This document shows positions 21,030 through 25,189 of a stretch of DNA of 64,000 nucleotides, one piece after another. The position numbers and the translations under genes are program-made. Below the pieces are notes generated by a model. The model was given only the letters and a program-made list of their open reading frames with translations. It did no database searches and was not told the origin of the DNA. The stretch covers positions 186,001 to 250,000 of the forward strand of contig NZ_SBIT01000002.1 in assembly GCF_004765785.1 (NCBI RefSeq), in the 5' to 3' direction. This DNA comes from Halorussus ruber (GTDB lineage: Archaea; Halobacteriota; Halobacteria; Halobacteriales; Haladaptataceae). The first letter of the stretch is position 1; each line of letters starts with the position of its first letter.

Positions 21030-21620
21030 TCAGAAGTCGCCCAGCTGGGACTGGCCGTTCGAGTCGCCGTCGGCCATCGCGGCGGCCTTGTCGAGGGCGG
21101 CGTCTAAGGTCTCCTCCTGACTGCGGTCGTAGAGGGTCGCGGCGGGGTGGACGCAAATCAACACGTCGCGGACCGCGCCGCCGAGTTCGGCCTGCTCGAT
21201 GCTCCCGGCCTCCTTGGTCACCGCCACGTCGCGGTCCAGCAGGTGCTGGCTGGGGACCTTCCCGAGCGTGATGATGAGTTCAGGGTCCACCTGCTCGATT
21301 TCGCTTTCGAGGTAGGGAAAGCAGTTGTCCAACTCCTCTCCGGTCGGGTCGCGGTTCTCGGGCGGGCGACACCGGACGCAGTTGGTGATGCGCACGTCCT
21401 GTCGGGCCAGCCCTCGGTCGCGCAACTTGTCGTCCAGAATCGTCCCGCTCCGGCCGACGAAGGGTTCGCCTTCCCTGTCTTCCTGTTCGCCGGGTCCCTC
21501 GCCGACGAACACCACGTCTGCGTCCGCCGGGCCGGTGCCGTTGACGATTCGGCTCCGACAATCGACCAACTCGGGGCACTTCGTGCAGTCGGTCACTTCG
21601 AGTCCGTCCATTTCTCCCAT
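21030..21620 (-). CDS. Type-4 uracil-DNA glycosylase
   Basis: 196 residues. It removes uracil from DNA to start base-excision repair. The family's FeS cysteines are visible: CTKC (residues 10-13) and CVRC within TNCVRCRPPENRDP, with a further Cys at the VLICVHPAATL site. The active-site loop is GEGPGEQEDREGEPFVGRSG, and the minor-groove motif is HPAATLY. ATG 21620 (MGEMDGLEV) is the start; the longer frame to 21716 has no family similarity. The C-terminus has a short Asp/Ser/Gln tail. Archaea often use this enzyme with the DNA polymerase's uracil read-ahead. Confidence 0.92.
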   Translation of the reverse strand: MGEMDGLEVTDCTKCPELVDCRSRIVNGTGPADADVVFVGEGPGEQEDREGEPFVGRSGTILDDKLRDRGLARQDVRITNCVRCRPPENRDPTGEELDNCFPYLESEIEQVDPELIITLGKVPSQHLLDRDVAVTKEAGSIEQAELGGAVRDVLICVHPAATLYDRSQEETLDAALDKAAAMADGDSNGQSQLGDF

Positions 21621-21757
21621 GCGAGGAGGGTTCGGGGTGGCGGTATTAAGAATCGGCGGCCTCGGACAAAATGTCACCCCCAAGTCCAATAAAGTACGAG
21701 TCGCCCATTCGTTCATTCGCGGCGTACCAATCAGGGTAAATCAATTTTTAGAGGGTC

Positions 21758-22138
21758 TTATTCGAAATAGTCCTTCTTCAGGTAGAGATAAGAAGCAAAC
21801 ACAATAGTAAGGACCGTTCTTGTTCCAAAAGTGGACAACTCGATCTCGTTCGTCAAGAAACTTGAGAAGGTGTAAAGGAAAGCAAGGAAGTGAATGAAAA
21901 GAGTAACAGTCCAAGCCCAGTGTTTCAATTTCCAGAGATAATATATGAGGATTAATGAAAGGATTGGTACGGGCGTGTAAATCCACATCGCAGGGTCTGT
22001 TGAAAGTAGGAGAACGAGAACGGCAAGCCATCCAACTGTGTACAGTCCAATATACAGTTTCAGACCTTGTGGCCGAGCTTTCGGCTTTCTACGCCCTTTT
22101 GGCTCCTCTACTTGCTCCGTATGAGAATGATCTGGCAT
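21758..22138 (-). CDS. Hypothetical four-helix membrane protein in an AT-rich patch
   Basis: 126 residues. A charged N-tail (HTEQVEEPKGRRKPKARP) is followed by about four hydrophobic helices (LYIGLYTVGWLAVLVLLL, PVPILSLILIYYLW, WTVTLFIHFLAFLYTF, VLTIVFASYLYL). Base composition is clearly more AT-rich than the core genes, suggesting acquisition. It stands alone between UDG and the split secreted-protein gene. No family is recognised. Confidence 0.6.
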   Translation of the reverse strand: MPDHSHTEQVEEPKGRRKPKARPQGLKLYIGLYTVGWLAVLVLLLSTDPAMWIYTPVPILSLILIYYLWKLKHWAWTVTLFIHFLAFLYTFSSFLTNEIELSTFGTRTVLTIVFASYLYLKKDYFE

Positions 22139-22211
22139 GACCCATATTAGTATTCATTTTAACATATGCCTTTTCCCCAAACCCTCAGGAAAATGCCGGA
22201 AATTACAATAG

Positions 22212-23471
22212 TTACTGAGTAGAATGAAGTCCGAGATTGGATGGCTCAAATTCAGCATGTCCCCCAGCAGGAACGTGGATCTTCCACTCCATCGCATTCT
22301 TTGCTAGGTACTCAATAGACGTACTTGGCGTAGAGAATTCCTGATTGATAGTGACATCAACACTCTCGTCTTTAGGAATTTCAATCCTAAAGGCGTCGAT
22401 TTGTAATATCATTGCTTGGAGATCGCAAAAGTCATATCTCATAGTGACCTTGTTTATCTGAGAATCAGTATAGTATTCACAGGCAGAGCCGTCATTCTGA
22501 AGGATTTCGATAGCATCAACCAGAGTAAGGAAATCTCCAAGGATGGGAACCTCGCCTAGAGCCAAAATAAACAGATCCCAAAGTCCCTGGTTTTCCTCTT
22601 TCTCGTTCAACTTGTTTCCATCCACTGCTTTGTCTTTCACTTCCTGGCTTGTTGCCCACTCGTGCCAATTGTCGGACTTCCATTGCTCCCAGTCCTCACC
22701 TTTGAGATTACCTGCATACGAACGCTGGTCGTTCCAGTACAGGTATTGATTGCTGGAATCAGCCATGTTATTCACGTCCATCGTCACTTCAATTTGTTCC
22801 ATTAGCTCCCGGAGCCCAACCTCGTCTTTCGACGGGTTCGTTACGTCTTCTTCAACAACGTAAGCATGAGCAAGTGAACCGACGACGAAGTAATGTACGT
22901 ACTCGTCTGAACCAAGGGGATCCCGTCCATCGTAATCCAAGAAGAAATTGAAATCCTGCATGACGTCAACTGAATCACTGTCCGCATCGTCCCGTTGAGT
23001 GTCCGACTTATTCACGATCCCCCATCCACCGCTATGGTACTCAAACTCTCCAACGTTGACGTGATCAATAAAGACTCCTTCAGTAGAGTCACCAAAGTAC
23101 CCATCAAACCCGATACCCCCACTTGTCCAAGTCAAATCTGAACCCTGTACGGTAGCCAACGTATTATCCTTCAAATCGTAGATCTCGACCCTCTGAGTAC
23201 CGTCTGATTGCCAGTCAATTTCGGCCCAGTACCACGCGTCTTGAGACATGGACAAGTTATTCGAACTGTCCAAAACAGTACCATCACCGTTCTGGTACTT
23301 GAACAAGTAGACATCCCCTGAAACTGGTTTGATTTTTACGTAGTAACGGTCGTCGTGACCTTGGACACCCCATGAAATGTTGAAATTATCTGCGCCACCG
23401 GTTGGCATGAAGTAGCAACCCAGTGTATCACCAGCAGACGGGGAGTTCTGAAGTCCCGACGTGCTTATCAT
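22212..23471 (-). pseudogene. 3' part of a secreted two-domain protein, separated by an in-frame TGA
   Basis: 419 codons beginning in the middle of a beta-sandwich domain. GDTLGCYFMPTGGADNFNI and DDRYYVKIKPVSGDVYLF line up with GDTITCWIRGANATENVNV and DDHYYVKINMEKS in the preceding frame, and YWAEIDWQSDGTQRVEIYD with WYKLEIKWTDGSPNTHDVT. A further 220 residues (from about 200) include an acidic segment and two Cys near the end, without a recognised family. It is in the same frame as the frame ending at 23484; only the TGA at 23484-23486 and four codons lie between. No promoter or signal peptide of its own is seen. Confidence 0.6.
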
Positions 23472-23483
23472 TTCAGTATTATC

Positions 23484-24455
23484 TCAACTAATCTTTAAAC
23501 CTCGGCGACCGTTATAGACTCCTCCTAGCTCGTTCGGACCAGAGTATTCTGACGCCTTGATTATCTCTGCTCCTGTTTCACCTCTATCAAAGTCGAAAGG
23601 TGAAAGACCGAGTGCCTTGTTGAAGTTCGCTACAGTTTGATATTTACCGATTGGACCAGAACTACCGGTGGTCGCGTAGTCGAACTGCGCCGTCTCACTT
23701 GACGATCCAAGGTACGCGGAGTACCCGAATCCACGCCCCTCAAAGTTGGGGTCGGCGCTGTCGCTCCCGTCGTAGGTGAACGACGCCAGAGAATTCCCGT
23801 TCTGGTCGTACAGCGTCACGTCGTGTGTGTTGGGCGACCCGTCGGTCCACTTTATTTCGAGTTTGTACCACGTGTTCGTCGAGAACGAGGGGTCCTCCGC
23901 CGCAGTCGTTAACCACGTGGCACTCCCGTCGTTGACCACGCCCATGCCGAGGAGACTCTTTTCCATGTTTATCTTCACGTAGTAGTGGTCGTCCCGGCCA
24001 TCGCCGTCCACCGCGCCGTAGTTGACATTCACGTTCTCGGTAGCGTTCGCACCTCGAATCCAGCACGTGATCGTGTCCCCGACTTGTGGATACGACGTCA
24101 AGTCGTTGCCATCGTCGTCGTAGGAAATCATCTTGGTATCTCCTTCACCGAGCGTGAGGACGCTATCGCTCGCGTCACCGGTTGCTTTCGTCGATACGGT
24201 GTCGAGACTCGCGTTCGATTCCCCGAACTCGAAATAGTAGTGGTCTTTCATCTCCGAAATGGAACCGTAGTCGAAGTCCGCGAAGACCGCTCCACTTGCC
24301 GCCTGCGCGGGCATCGTTACCTCCGAACTCAACGCCCCTGTCCCAAGCCCGGCTCCGACTCCCGACCCGGCCATTCCGGCCAACTTGAGGTAGGTTCGGC
24401 GGTCGAAAGTCTCAGTCGTCGTTTTGCTGGATTCGCGGGAATTTTTCTCAGACAT
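23484..24455 (-). CDS. Tat-exported protein with LamG/concanavalin-like domain (5' part of split gene)
   Basis: About 323 residues from ATG 24455 (MSEKNSRESSK). The Tat signal is FDRRTYLKLAGMAGSGVGAG with a cut near PAQAASG. Residues about 65-265 form a jelly-roll lectin-like domain (DDHYYVKINMEKS, WYKLEIKWTDGSPNTHDVTLYDQ, GRGFGYSAYLGSSS). It then enters the start of a second such domain (GPNELGGVYNGRRGLKIS) and stops at TGA. The gene therefore looks like the front of a longer protein continued in 22212-23471. Exported glycan binding or adhesion is a family-level guess. GC content falls through the gene toward its 3' side. Confidence 0.65.
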   Translation of the reverse strand: MSEKNSRESSKTTTETFDRRTYLKLAGMAGSGVGAGLGTGALSSEVTMPAQAASGAVFADFDYGSISEMKDHYYFEFGESNASLDTVSTKATGDASDSVLTLGEGDTKMISYDDDGNDLTSYPQVGDTITCWIRGANATENVNVNYGAVDGDGRDDHYYVKINMEKSLLGMGVVNDGSATWLTTAAEDPSFSTNTWYKLEIKWTDGSPNTHDVTLYDQNGNSLASFTYDGSDSADPNFEGRGFGYSAYLGSSSETAQFDYATTGSSGPIGKYQTVANFNKALGLSPFDFDRGETGAEIIKASEYSGPNELGGVYNGRRGLKIS

Positions 24456-24487
24456 CGGGAGCAAAAATACGGGCATACATATTAGTT

Positions 24488-24506
24488 AATTTCTAGTTAT
24501 AGAATT
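24488..24506. repeat. AT palindrome upstream of the Tat-protein gene
   Basis: AATTTCTAGTTATAGAATT is a near-perfect inverted repeat (one mismatch) resembling the 3961-3980 palindrome. It is 33-51 nt before the ATG at 24455, so here it is at a promoter rather than a 3' end. Confidence 0.4.
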
Positions 24507-24628
24507 AAAATAACAGTATATTTTTATTATATTTGAGCTATTATCTTGGGGTGCGAACCGAGGAAGGCCATCGATAGCAGTTGCTCTCTTTCAAGTGCAC
24601 CACCGCACCTACTCTCCCCGAACCACGG

Positions 24629-25189
24629 CTAGTCGCCTTCTCGCCGCAACTCGTCGCCCGCTCTGGCCGCCAGCCTCGCCACCCGAAGCGGTTCGGGCCG
24701 ACCGCCCTCGGGCGTGAAGGCCCGAACTGCGTCCCGAGCCTCGCTCGGGTCCACTCCCACCGAACGCACGAAGACGGTCTGGTCGTTGAGGGCGAGGCGC
24801 TCGCGGGGCGGCTGACGGTCGAGAATCTCGGTTCGGGCGCGTAATTCCTCCCCCTCGAACTCGGCTTCAAGGGCTTCGGTCAGGCCGGGACTCTCCTCGA
24901 ACGTGACCGAGATTACGGGGCGGTCGAGTTCGTCGGCGAGGCGGCGCAGGTCCACGACGTTGTACCACGCCAGCGCGATGCCAGCGACGAAGACGTATCT
25001 CACGTCCTCTCGGCCGAGTCTCGAAAAAAGGTCAGCGATTGCATCGGTGGCGTCCAGTCCGCCGACGGTGCAGGTCTCGTAGGCGAAGCCATCGGTGACG
25101 CGACTCGCGCGAGTGACGACGCCTGCGAGCGTGCTACGACGTTCCCGATACGATTCGGCGACTCCGAGCGCACGGACGCCGGACTTCAC
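24629..25189 (-). CDS. DUF99 family protein (endonuclease dU-like)
   Basis: 186 residues of the DUF99/UPF0215 family, related to endonuclease V. Marks are VRALGVAESYRERRSTLAGVV, VFVAGIALAWYNVVDL and RPVISVTFEESPGL. Some members cleave DNA at deoxyuridine; repair is a family-level inference and the active-site Asp pattern cannot be verified by eye. The stop is 2 bp from the start of no other gene, and the DUF5786 gene upstream ends 1 bp before this start, so the two are probably co-transcribed. Confidence 0.85.
   Translation of the reverse strand: MKSGVRALGVAESYRERRSTLAGVVTRASRVTDGFAYETCTVGGLDATDAIADLFSRLGREDVRYVFVAGIALAWYNVVDLRRLADELDRPVISVTFEESPGLTEALEAEFEGEELRARTEILDRQPPRERLALNDQTVFVRSVGVDPSEARDAVRAFTPEGGRPEPLRVARLAARAGDELRREGD

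What the first reader, a model, noticed from the sequence alone, without database searches (positions are those of the whole stretch)
23470..23500. In-frame TGA splits a secreted two-domain gene
The frames 24455-23484 and 23471-22212 are the same reading frame, separated only by one TGA (23484-23486) and four codons (DNTE). The TGA falls inside the second copy of a jelly-roll domain: LTLGEGDTKMIS in domain 1 matches LKIS-stop-DNTEMIS in domain 2. Either a recent nonsense mutation (for example from CGA) or readthrough. The region is AT-richer than its surroundings.
Basis: seen in the sequence. Interest (0 to 1): 0.6.

Follow-up and report, generated by a model that had tools for sequence, protein, structure and literature searches.

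The report
Broken accessory surface-protein gene in haloarchaeon
A salt-loving archaeon carries a foreign-looking gene for a secreted, lectin-fold repeat protein that a single stop codon has cut in two; it is most likely an ordinary, recent pseudogene rather than a case of stop-codon readthrough.

Summary
One minus-strand reading frame (24455-22212) is interrupted by a single TGA at 23486-23484, inside the second of two related jelly-roll domains. The host is a haloarchaeon close to Halorussus.

Relatives are single uninterrupted Tat-secreted genes with one to four such domains and differing C-termini. In a profile search of 392 genomes (about 106 domain matches in 55 genomes), only the window's domain 2 has an in-frame stop. 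The ATG after the stop is an ordinary internal residue (M/I/L of TEMISTSGL), so the downstream half is not an independently evolved gene. TGA is the commonest stop in this window, and no SepSecS gene was found.

The gene lies in a 2.9-kb AT-rich insert between Endo_dU and UDG, which are neighbours in related genomes. Its GC3 falls abruptly from 0.76 to 0.49 between the two domains, suggesting a chimera. Other family copies are disrupted too (frameshifts, truncation).

Best explanation: a recent nonsense mutation in an expendable, horizontally acquired gene. Sequencing error, reinitiation and readthrough remain minor rivals. Low interest.

The parts
24300..24455 (-). N-terminus with Tat-type signal (DRRTYLKLAGMAGSG); ATG at 24455, alternative ATG at 24476
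   Evidence: Read from sequence; relatives have the same twin-Arg N-terminus
23667..24299 (-). jelly-roll domain 1 (SO2946-like_C), intact, GC3 0.77
   Evidence: Pfam PF22237 E 2.3e-6, above cut-off; profile E 4e-55; composition
23666..23666 (.). estimated composition break (GC3 0.76 to 0.49); likely chimera junction
   Evidence: Two-segment GC3 scan, 0 of 500 permutations reach it
23487..23654 (-). first part of jelly-roll domain 2, before the stop; carries an insertion of about 10 residues relative to relatives
23484..23486 (-). in-frame TGA, the only stop inside the domain in about 106 family matches
23494..23499 (-). TTTAAA, TATA-like, 22 nt upstream of ATG 23471 (probably coincidental)
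   Evidence: 1 of 36 ATGs in the gene has such a motif at that distance
23469..23471 (-). ATG after the stop; aligns to an internal hydrophobic column (M/I/L) of the domain
23043..23483 (-). rest of jelly-roll domain 2, after the stop
   Evidence: Profile 164 bits on the post-stop piece alone; 43-51% identity to relatives
22212..23042 (-). variable C-terminal region with no clear family; weak similarity of about 54 residues to another Tat-secreted haloarchaeal protein
21758..22138 (-). 126-aa predicted membrane protein in the same AT-rich insert
   Evidence: homologues elsewhere in the family, none shown next to such a gene
21633..24628 (.). AT-rich insert between Endo_dU (24629-25189) and UDG (21030-21716), adjacent genes in relatives; the downstream edge is approximate

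Best explanation
This is a recently inactivated gene. A haloarchaeon acquired, between Endo_dU and UDG, a small AT-rich insert holding a gene for a Tat-exported protein: signal, two concanavalin-A-like jelly-roll domains and a variable C-terminal region. The gene appears to be a fusion of a near-native first part with an AT-rich second part (inferred). A point mutation then turned a sense codon in domain 2, at a column that is usually Gly, into TGA. Translation would now give a 323-330-residue exported fragment with one whole domain and a broken second one; the C-terminal region would not be made. Shown: one frame, one private stop, domain homology across the stop, the insert, the composition break. 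Inferred: point mutation as the cause, loss of function, recency, horizontal origin.
For: Single frame and single stop. Relatives are continuous Tat + jelly-roll genes of 654-1101 codons. Only 1 of about 106 family matches has an in-frame stop. The column is Gly in 22, Ser in 12 and Asp in 7 of 58 other copies, and ATG 23471 is an internal M/I/L column. The profile runs across the stop. The insert sits between genes adjacent in relatives, with a GC3 break. Other members are broken too: L047 frameshift, L042 frameshift, L088 4-nt deletion against a 99.2% identical intact twin, L083 5' truncated beside IS5. TGA is a normal stop in 16 of 38 window genes. No SepSecS. One stop among 299 one-step routes to a stop suggests little neutral divergence (inference).
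Against: No orthologue close enough (best about 51%, domain 2 only) to show the intact state of this very gene or to date the change. The downstream frame is fully intact, as also expected if it were still used. No reads or second isolate were available.
Confidence: 0.83

Rival explanations
1. Sequencing or assembly error: the genome has a sense codon and the gene is intact.
For: Draft assembly of 31 contigs; the defect is one base in an otherwise clean frame.
Against: A substitution in a non-homopolymer context (ATTAGTTGAGATAATACT) is not the typical error. The gene is accessory, and family copies in other genomes are also disrupted.
Confidence: 0.09
2. Termination and reinitiation, or an independent leaderless transcript, yields a second protein from ATG 23471.
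For: ATG lies 12 nt after the stop. TTTAAA at 23494-23499 is the only TATA-like motif at that distance before any of 36 ATGs. Reinitiation at nearby ATGs is reported in the literature, and demonstrated for overlapping gene pairs in Haloferax volcanii (PMC6728339).
Against: The product would lack an export signal and the first strands of its domain. The Met is a conserved internal hydrophobic position, and the TTA AAG codons encode an aligned L-K/E. No relative is split here.
Confidence: 0.05
3. Programmed readthrough or recoding of TGA makes both a short and a long product.
For: The downstream frame is wholly open, with coding-like composition.
Against: The stop is not conserved in any relative. 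SepSecS is absent. No relative has Cys at the column. TGA is an ordinary stop in this genome. A review of recoding in Archaea ties stop redefinition to Sec and Pyl (PMC8211752).
Confidence: 0.03

Closest known systems
SO2946-like C-terminal domain (PF22237; solved structure 2a5z), concanavalin-A-like jelly-roll
   Same: Domain 1 passes the Pfam cut-off. The profile's only solved-structure hit is 2a5z (E 0.068). The domain 2 model's best Foldseek matches are 2a5z, with many legume lectins further down.
   Different: Tandem copies behind a Tat signal and fused to varied C-termini; sequence similarity to SO2946 is remote; the fold model has low confidence (pLDDT 52).
Haloarchaeal Tat-exported tandem jelly-roll proteins, e.g. 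Halorussus vallis WP_253521657 and WP_253521669
   Same: Twin-Arg signal and tandem copies of the same domain, 35-41% identity to window domain 2 in the multiple alignment.
   Different: They are uninterrupted; domain number and C-terminus differ; those two lie on a plasmid, whereas this one is between two housekeeping genes.
Pseudogenes in horizontally acquired accessory DNA
   Same: AT-rich insert, private stop, patchy distribution, other copies broken by indels and IS elements.
   Different: Only one lesion so far, so decay would be at a very early stage.

Membership tests
SO2946-like / ConA-like jelly-roll domain | significant match to PF22237 | tested here: met
   Domain 1 28.2 bits against a cut-off of 27; the post-stop half of domain 2 alone had no PF22237 hit, but both domains match one family profile
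SO2946-like / ConA-like jelly-roll domain | jelly-roll sandwich fold | tested here: inconclusive
   Predicted mostly beta; top Foldseek hits are lectin-fold, but pLDDT is 52 and TM about 0.3
Tat substrate | twin-arginine motif with hydrophobic stretch near the N-terminus | tested here: met
   DRRTYLKLAGMAGSGVGAG read in sequence; export itself not tested; no NCBIfam Tat hit for the window protein
Pseudogene by nonsense mutation | relatives uninterrupted, stop private to this copy | tested here: met
   only this copy has an in-frame stop
Pseudogene by nonsense mutation | loss of product or relaxed selection | not testable with these tools
   No close orthologue, no proteomics
Selenoprotein | Sec synthesis machinery in the genome | tested here: not met
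   No TIGR03531 (SepSecS) match; the control genome M. jannaschii rings
Selenoprotein | Cys or Sec at the position in homologues | tested here: not met
   Gly, Ser, Asp, Asn, Ala, Val, Lys, Glu only
Programmed stop-codon readthrough | stop conserved across orthologues | tested here: not met
Polymorphic secreted toxin / halocin carrier | same N-terminus with exchanged C-terminal toxin and matching downstream immunity gene | tested here: inconclusive
   C-termini differ between relatives, but the closest pair (L085/L088) is a 99% duplicate with no exchange; no toxin family matched; the 126-aa neighbour was not shown to be linked to this family

The most novel reading that the evidence does not exclude
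The Tat-exported jelly-roll proteins are a modular haloarchaeal delivery or adhesion family whose C-terminal effector parts are swapped by recombination. Here a swap, visible as the GC3 break at about 23666, was followed by silencing of the new effector part by the stop. This is suggested by varied C-termini and frequent breakage in relatives, but not shown.
Probability: 0.13. Interest if true: 0.5.

Novelty: new member of a known kind. Interest (0 to 1): 0.15.

Why it matters
It shows how a striking-looking in-frame stop resolves into routine decay of an acquired accessory gene. It also documents an under-described family of Tat-exported tandem jelly-roll proteins in haloarchaea, several of whose members are broken, some next to mobile elements. 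The gene should be annotated as one disrupted gene, not as two.

Tried and rejected
Selenocysteine or other recoding: rejected. Two independent genes: rejected, because no split relative was found and the Met is internal; the TATA-like TTTAAA is kept as a caveat. CGA origin: not supported (no Arg at the column). C-terminal function: no family in Pfam, NCBIfam, PADLOC or PHROGs, no relative in viral contigs, no useful fold (pLDDT 34.5); only a 54-residue similarity to a Tat-secreted protein. Toxin/immunity swapping in Haloarcula marina plasmids: the two loci are a 99.2% duplicate, one with a 4-nt deletion, so no swap. Stops reported for the matches in G108 and G097 lie at the normal gene ends, not inside the domain. 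The G171 member's frameshift is discounted because that low-completeness draft also has a broken Endo_dU. The 2.9-kb insert shows no flanking repeats of note.

Full report
What is there. On the minus strand, the frame opening at ATG 24455 (or 24476) reads a Tat-type signal (DRRTYLKLAGMAGSG), a first jelly-roll domain, and then a second domain, in the middle of which TGA (23486-23484) interrupts it. The same frame goes on GAT AAT ACT GAA ATG and stays open for 423 codons to TAA at 22212. The TGA is the only stop in about 754 codons. A random sequence of that composition would stay open for 423 codons with a probability of about 1e-11, so the downstream part was coding until recently.

What the two parts are. 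Domain 1 matches Pfam PF22237 (SO2946-like_C) above the curated cut-off. A profile of the family finds both window domains (E 4e-55 for domain 1 and 5.8e-70 for domain 2 read across the stop; both domains are among the 23 rows of that profile). With the window's rows left out of the profile, the pre-stop piece aligns to positions 10-47 and the post-stop piece to 53-193. The pre-stop score is modest (12.5 bits) but exceeds all 1000 shuffles. The only solved relative found by sequence is 2a5z, SO2946 (E 0.068). A low-confidence model of domain 2, with the stop read as a residue, has 2a5z as its best structural match, with many legume lectins further down the list. A concanavalin-A-like jelly-roll is therefore likely but not proven.

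Relatives. Among Halobacteriales, relatives are single continuous genes: a Tat signal, one to four copies of the domain, sometimes a beta-helix part, and differing C-termini. In 392 genomes about 106 domain matches were listed, and only the window's domain 2 contains an in-frame stop. The TGA falls where relatives read e.g. LEIS-G-TNTEMISTSGL. The column holds Gly 22, Ser 12, Asp 7, Asn 3, Ala 3, Val 2, Lys 1, Glu 1 and no Arg or Cys. The downstream ATG aligns with a hydrophobic column (Met 15, Ile 15, Leu 8, Val 6, Ala 6). It is thus an ordinary internal residue and not an evolved start.

Recoding. TGA ends 16 of 38 coding-like genes in the window. The archaeal Sec enzyme SepSecS is not found, while the control genome rings. 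A review of recoding in Archaea ties stop redefinition to selenocysteine and pyrrolysine (PMC8211752). Programmed readthrough is therefore very unlikely.

Reinitiation. The ATG lies 12 nt after the stop, and a TTTAAA sits 22 nt before it; this is the only one of 36 ATGs in the gene with such a motif at that distance. Reinitiation at nearby ATGs is reported in the literature (PMC6728339), so some downstream product cannot be excluded. It would have no export signal and a truncated domain, and no relative has this arrangement.

Setting. Endo_dU (24629-25189) and UDG (21030-21716) are neighbours, separated by at most a few hundred bases, in nearly all genomes of the family where both could be read. 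Sequence around the joint in L055-L057 shows the empty arrangement. Here about 2.9 kb of AT-rich DNA lies between them, holding this gene and a 126-aa membrane protein. Another genome, G176, has a different 1-kb AT-rich stretch at the same spot. Within the gene, GC3 falls from 0.76 to 0.49 at about 23666, between the two domains (0 of 500 permutations). L033, L044 and L040 are roughly even along their length, and L034 and L036 decline only gradually. A fusion of two pieces of different origin is the simplest reading, but it is inference.

Breakage is common in this family. L047 is frameshifted inside a domain. L042 is frameshifted upstream of its domain. One of two 99.2% identical Haloarcula marina plasmid copies has a 4-nt deletion. 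A Haloprofundus copy is 5' truncated beside an IS5 transposase. The G246 copy is scrambled. The G171 copy is also frameshifted, but that draft has a broken Endo_dU too, so error is likely there.

Conclusion. A recent nonsense mutation in an expendable acquired gene explains all observations. Sequencing error is the main rival and needs reads. The function of the C-terminal region remains open: no family was matched, and only a short similarity to another Tat-secreted haloarchaeal protein was seen.

Noticed in passing
window 21633-24628; L058 2030-3090: The Endo_dU-UDG intergenic spot carries different AT-rich inserts in two genomes (this one and G176), suggesting an insertion hotspot.
   Followed up: partly
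L085 and L088 (Haloarcula marina plasmids unnamed2 and unnamed3): A stretch of about 9 kb with rdfA, a Tat jelly-roll gene and a PQQ gene is duplicated at 99.2% identity; one jelly-roll copy has a 4-nt deletion.
   Followed up: partly
window 21030-21716: The UDG start is probably at 21620 (MGEMDG, conserved in relatives), not at the first ATG at 21716.
   Followed up: no
L132 (G225) 991-2082: A Tat-secreted 364-aa haloarchaeal protein shares about 54 residues (KLNE..ALG..P.IGD.L) with the window C-terminal region; a small variable family of unknown function.
   Followed up: partly
window 23494-23499: TATA-like TTTAAA at a leaderless-promoter distance from the ATG that follows the stop; probably coincidental.
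   Followed up: partly
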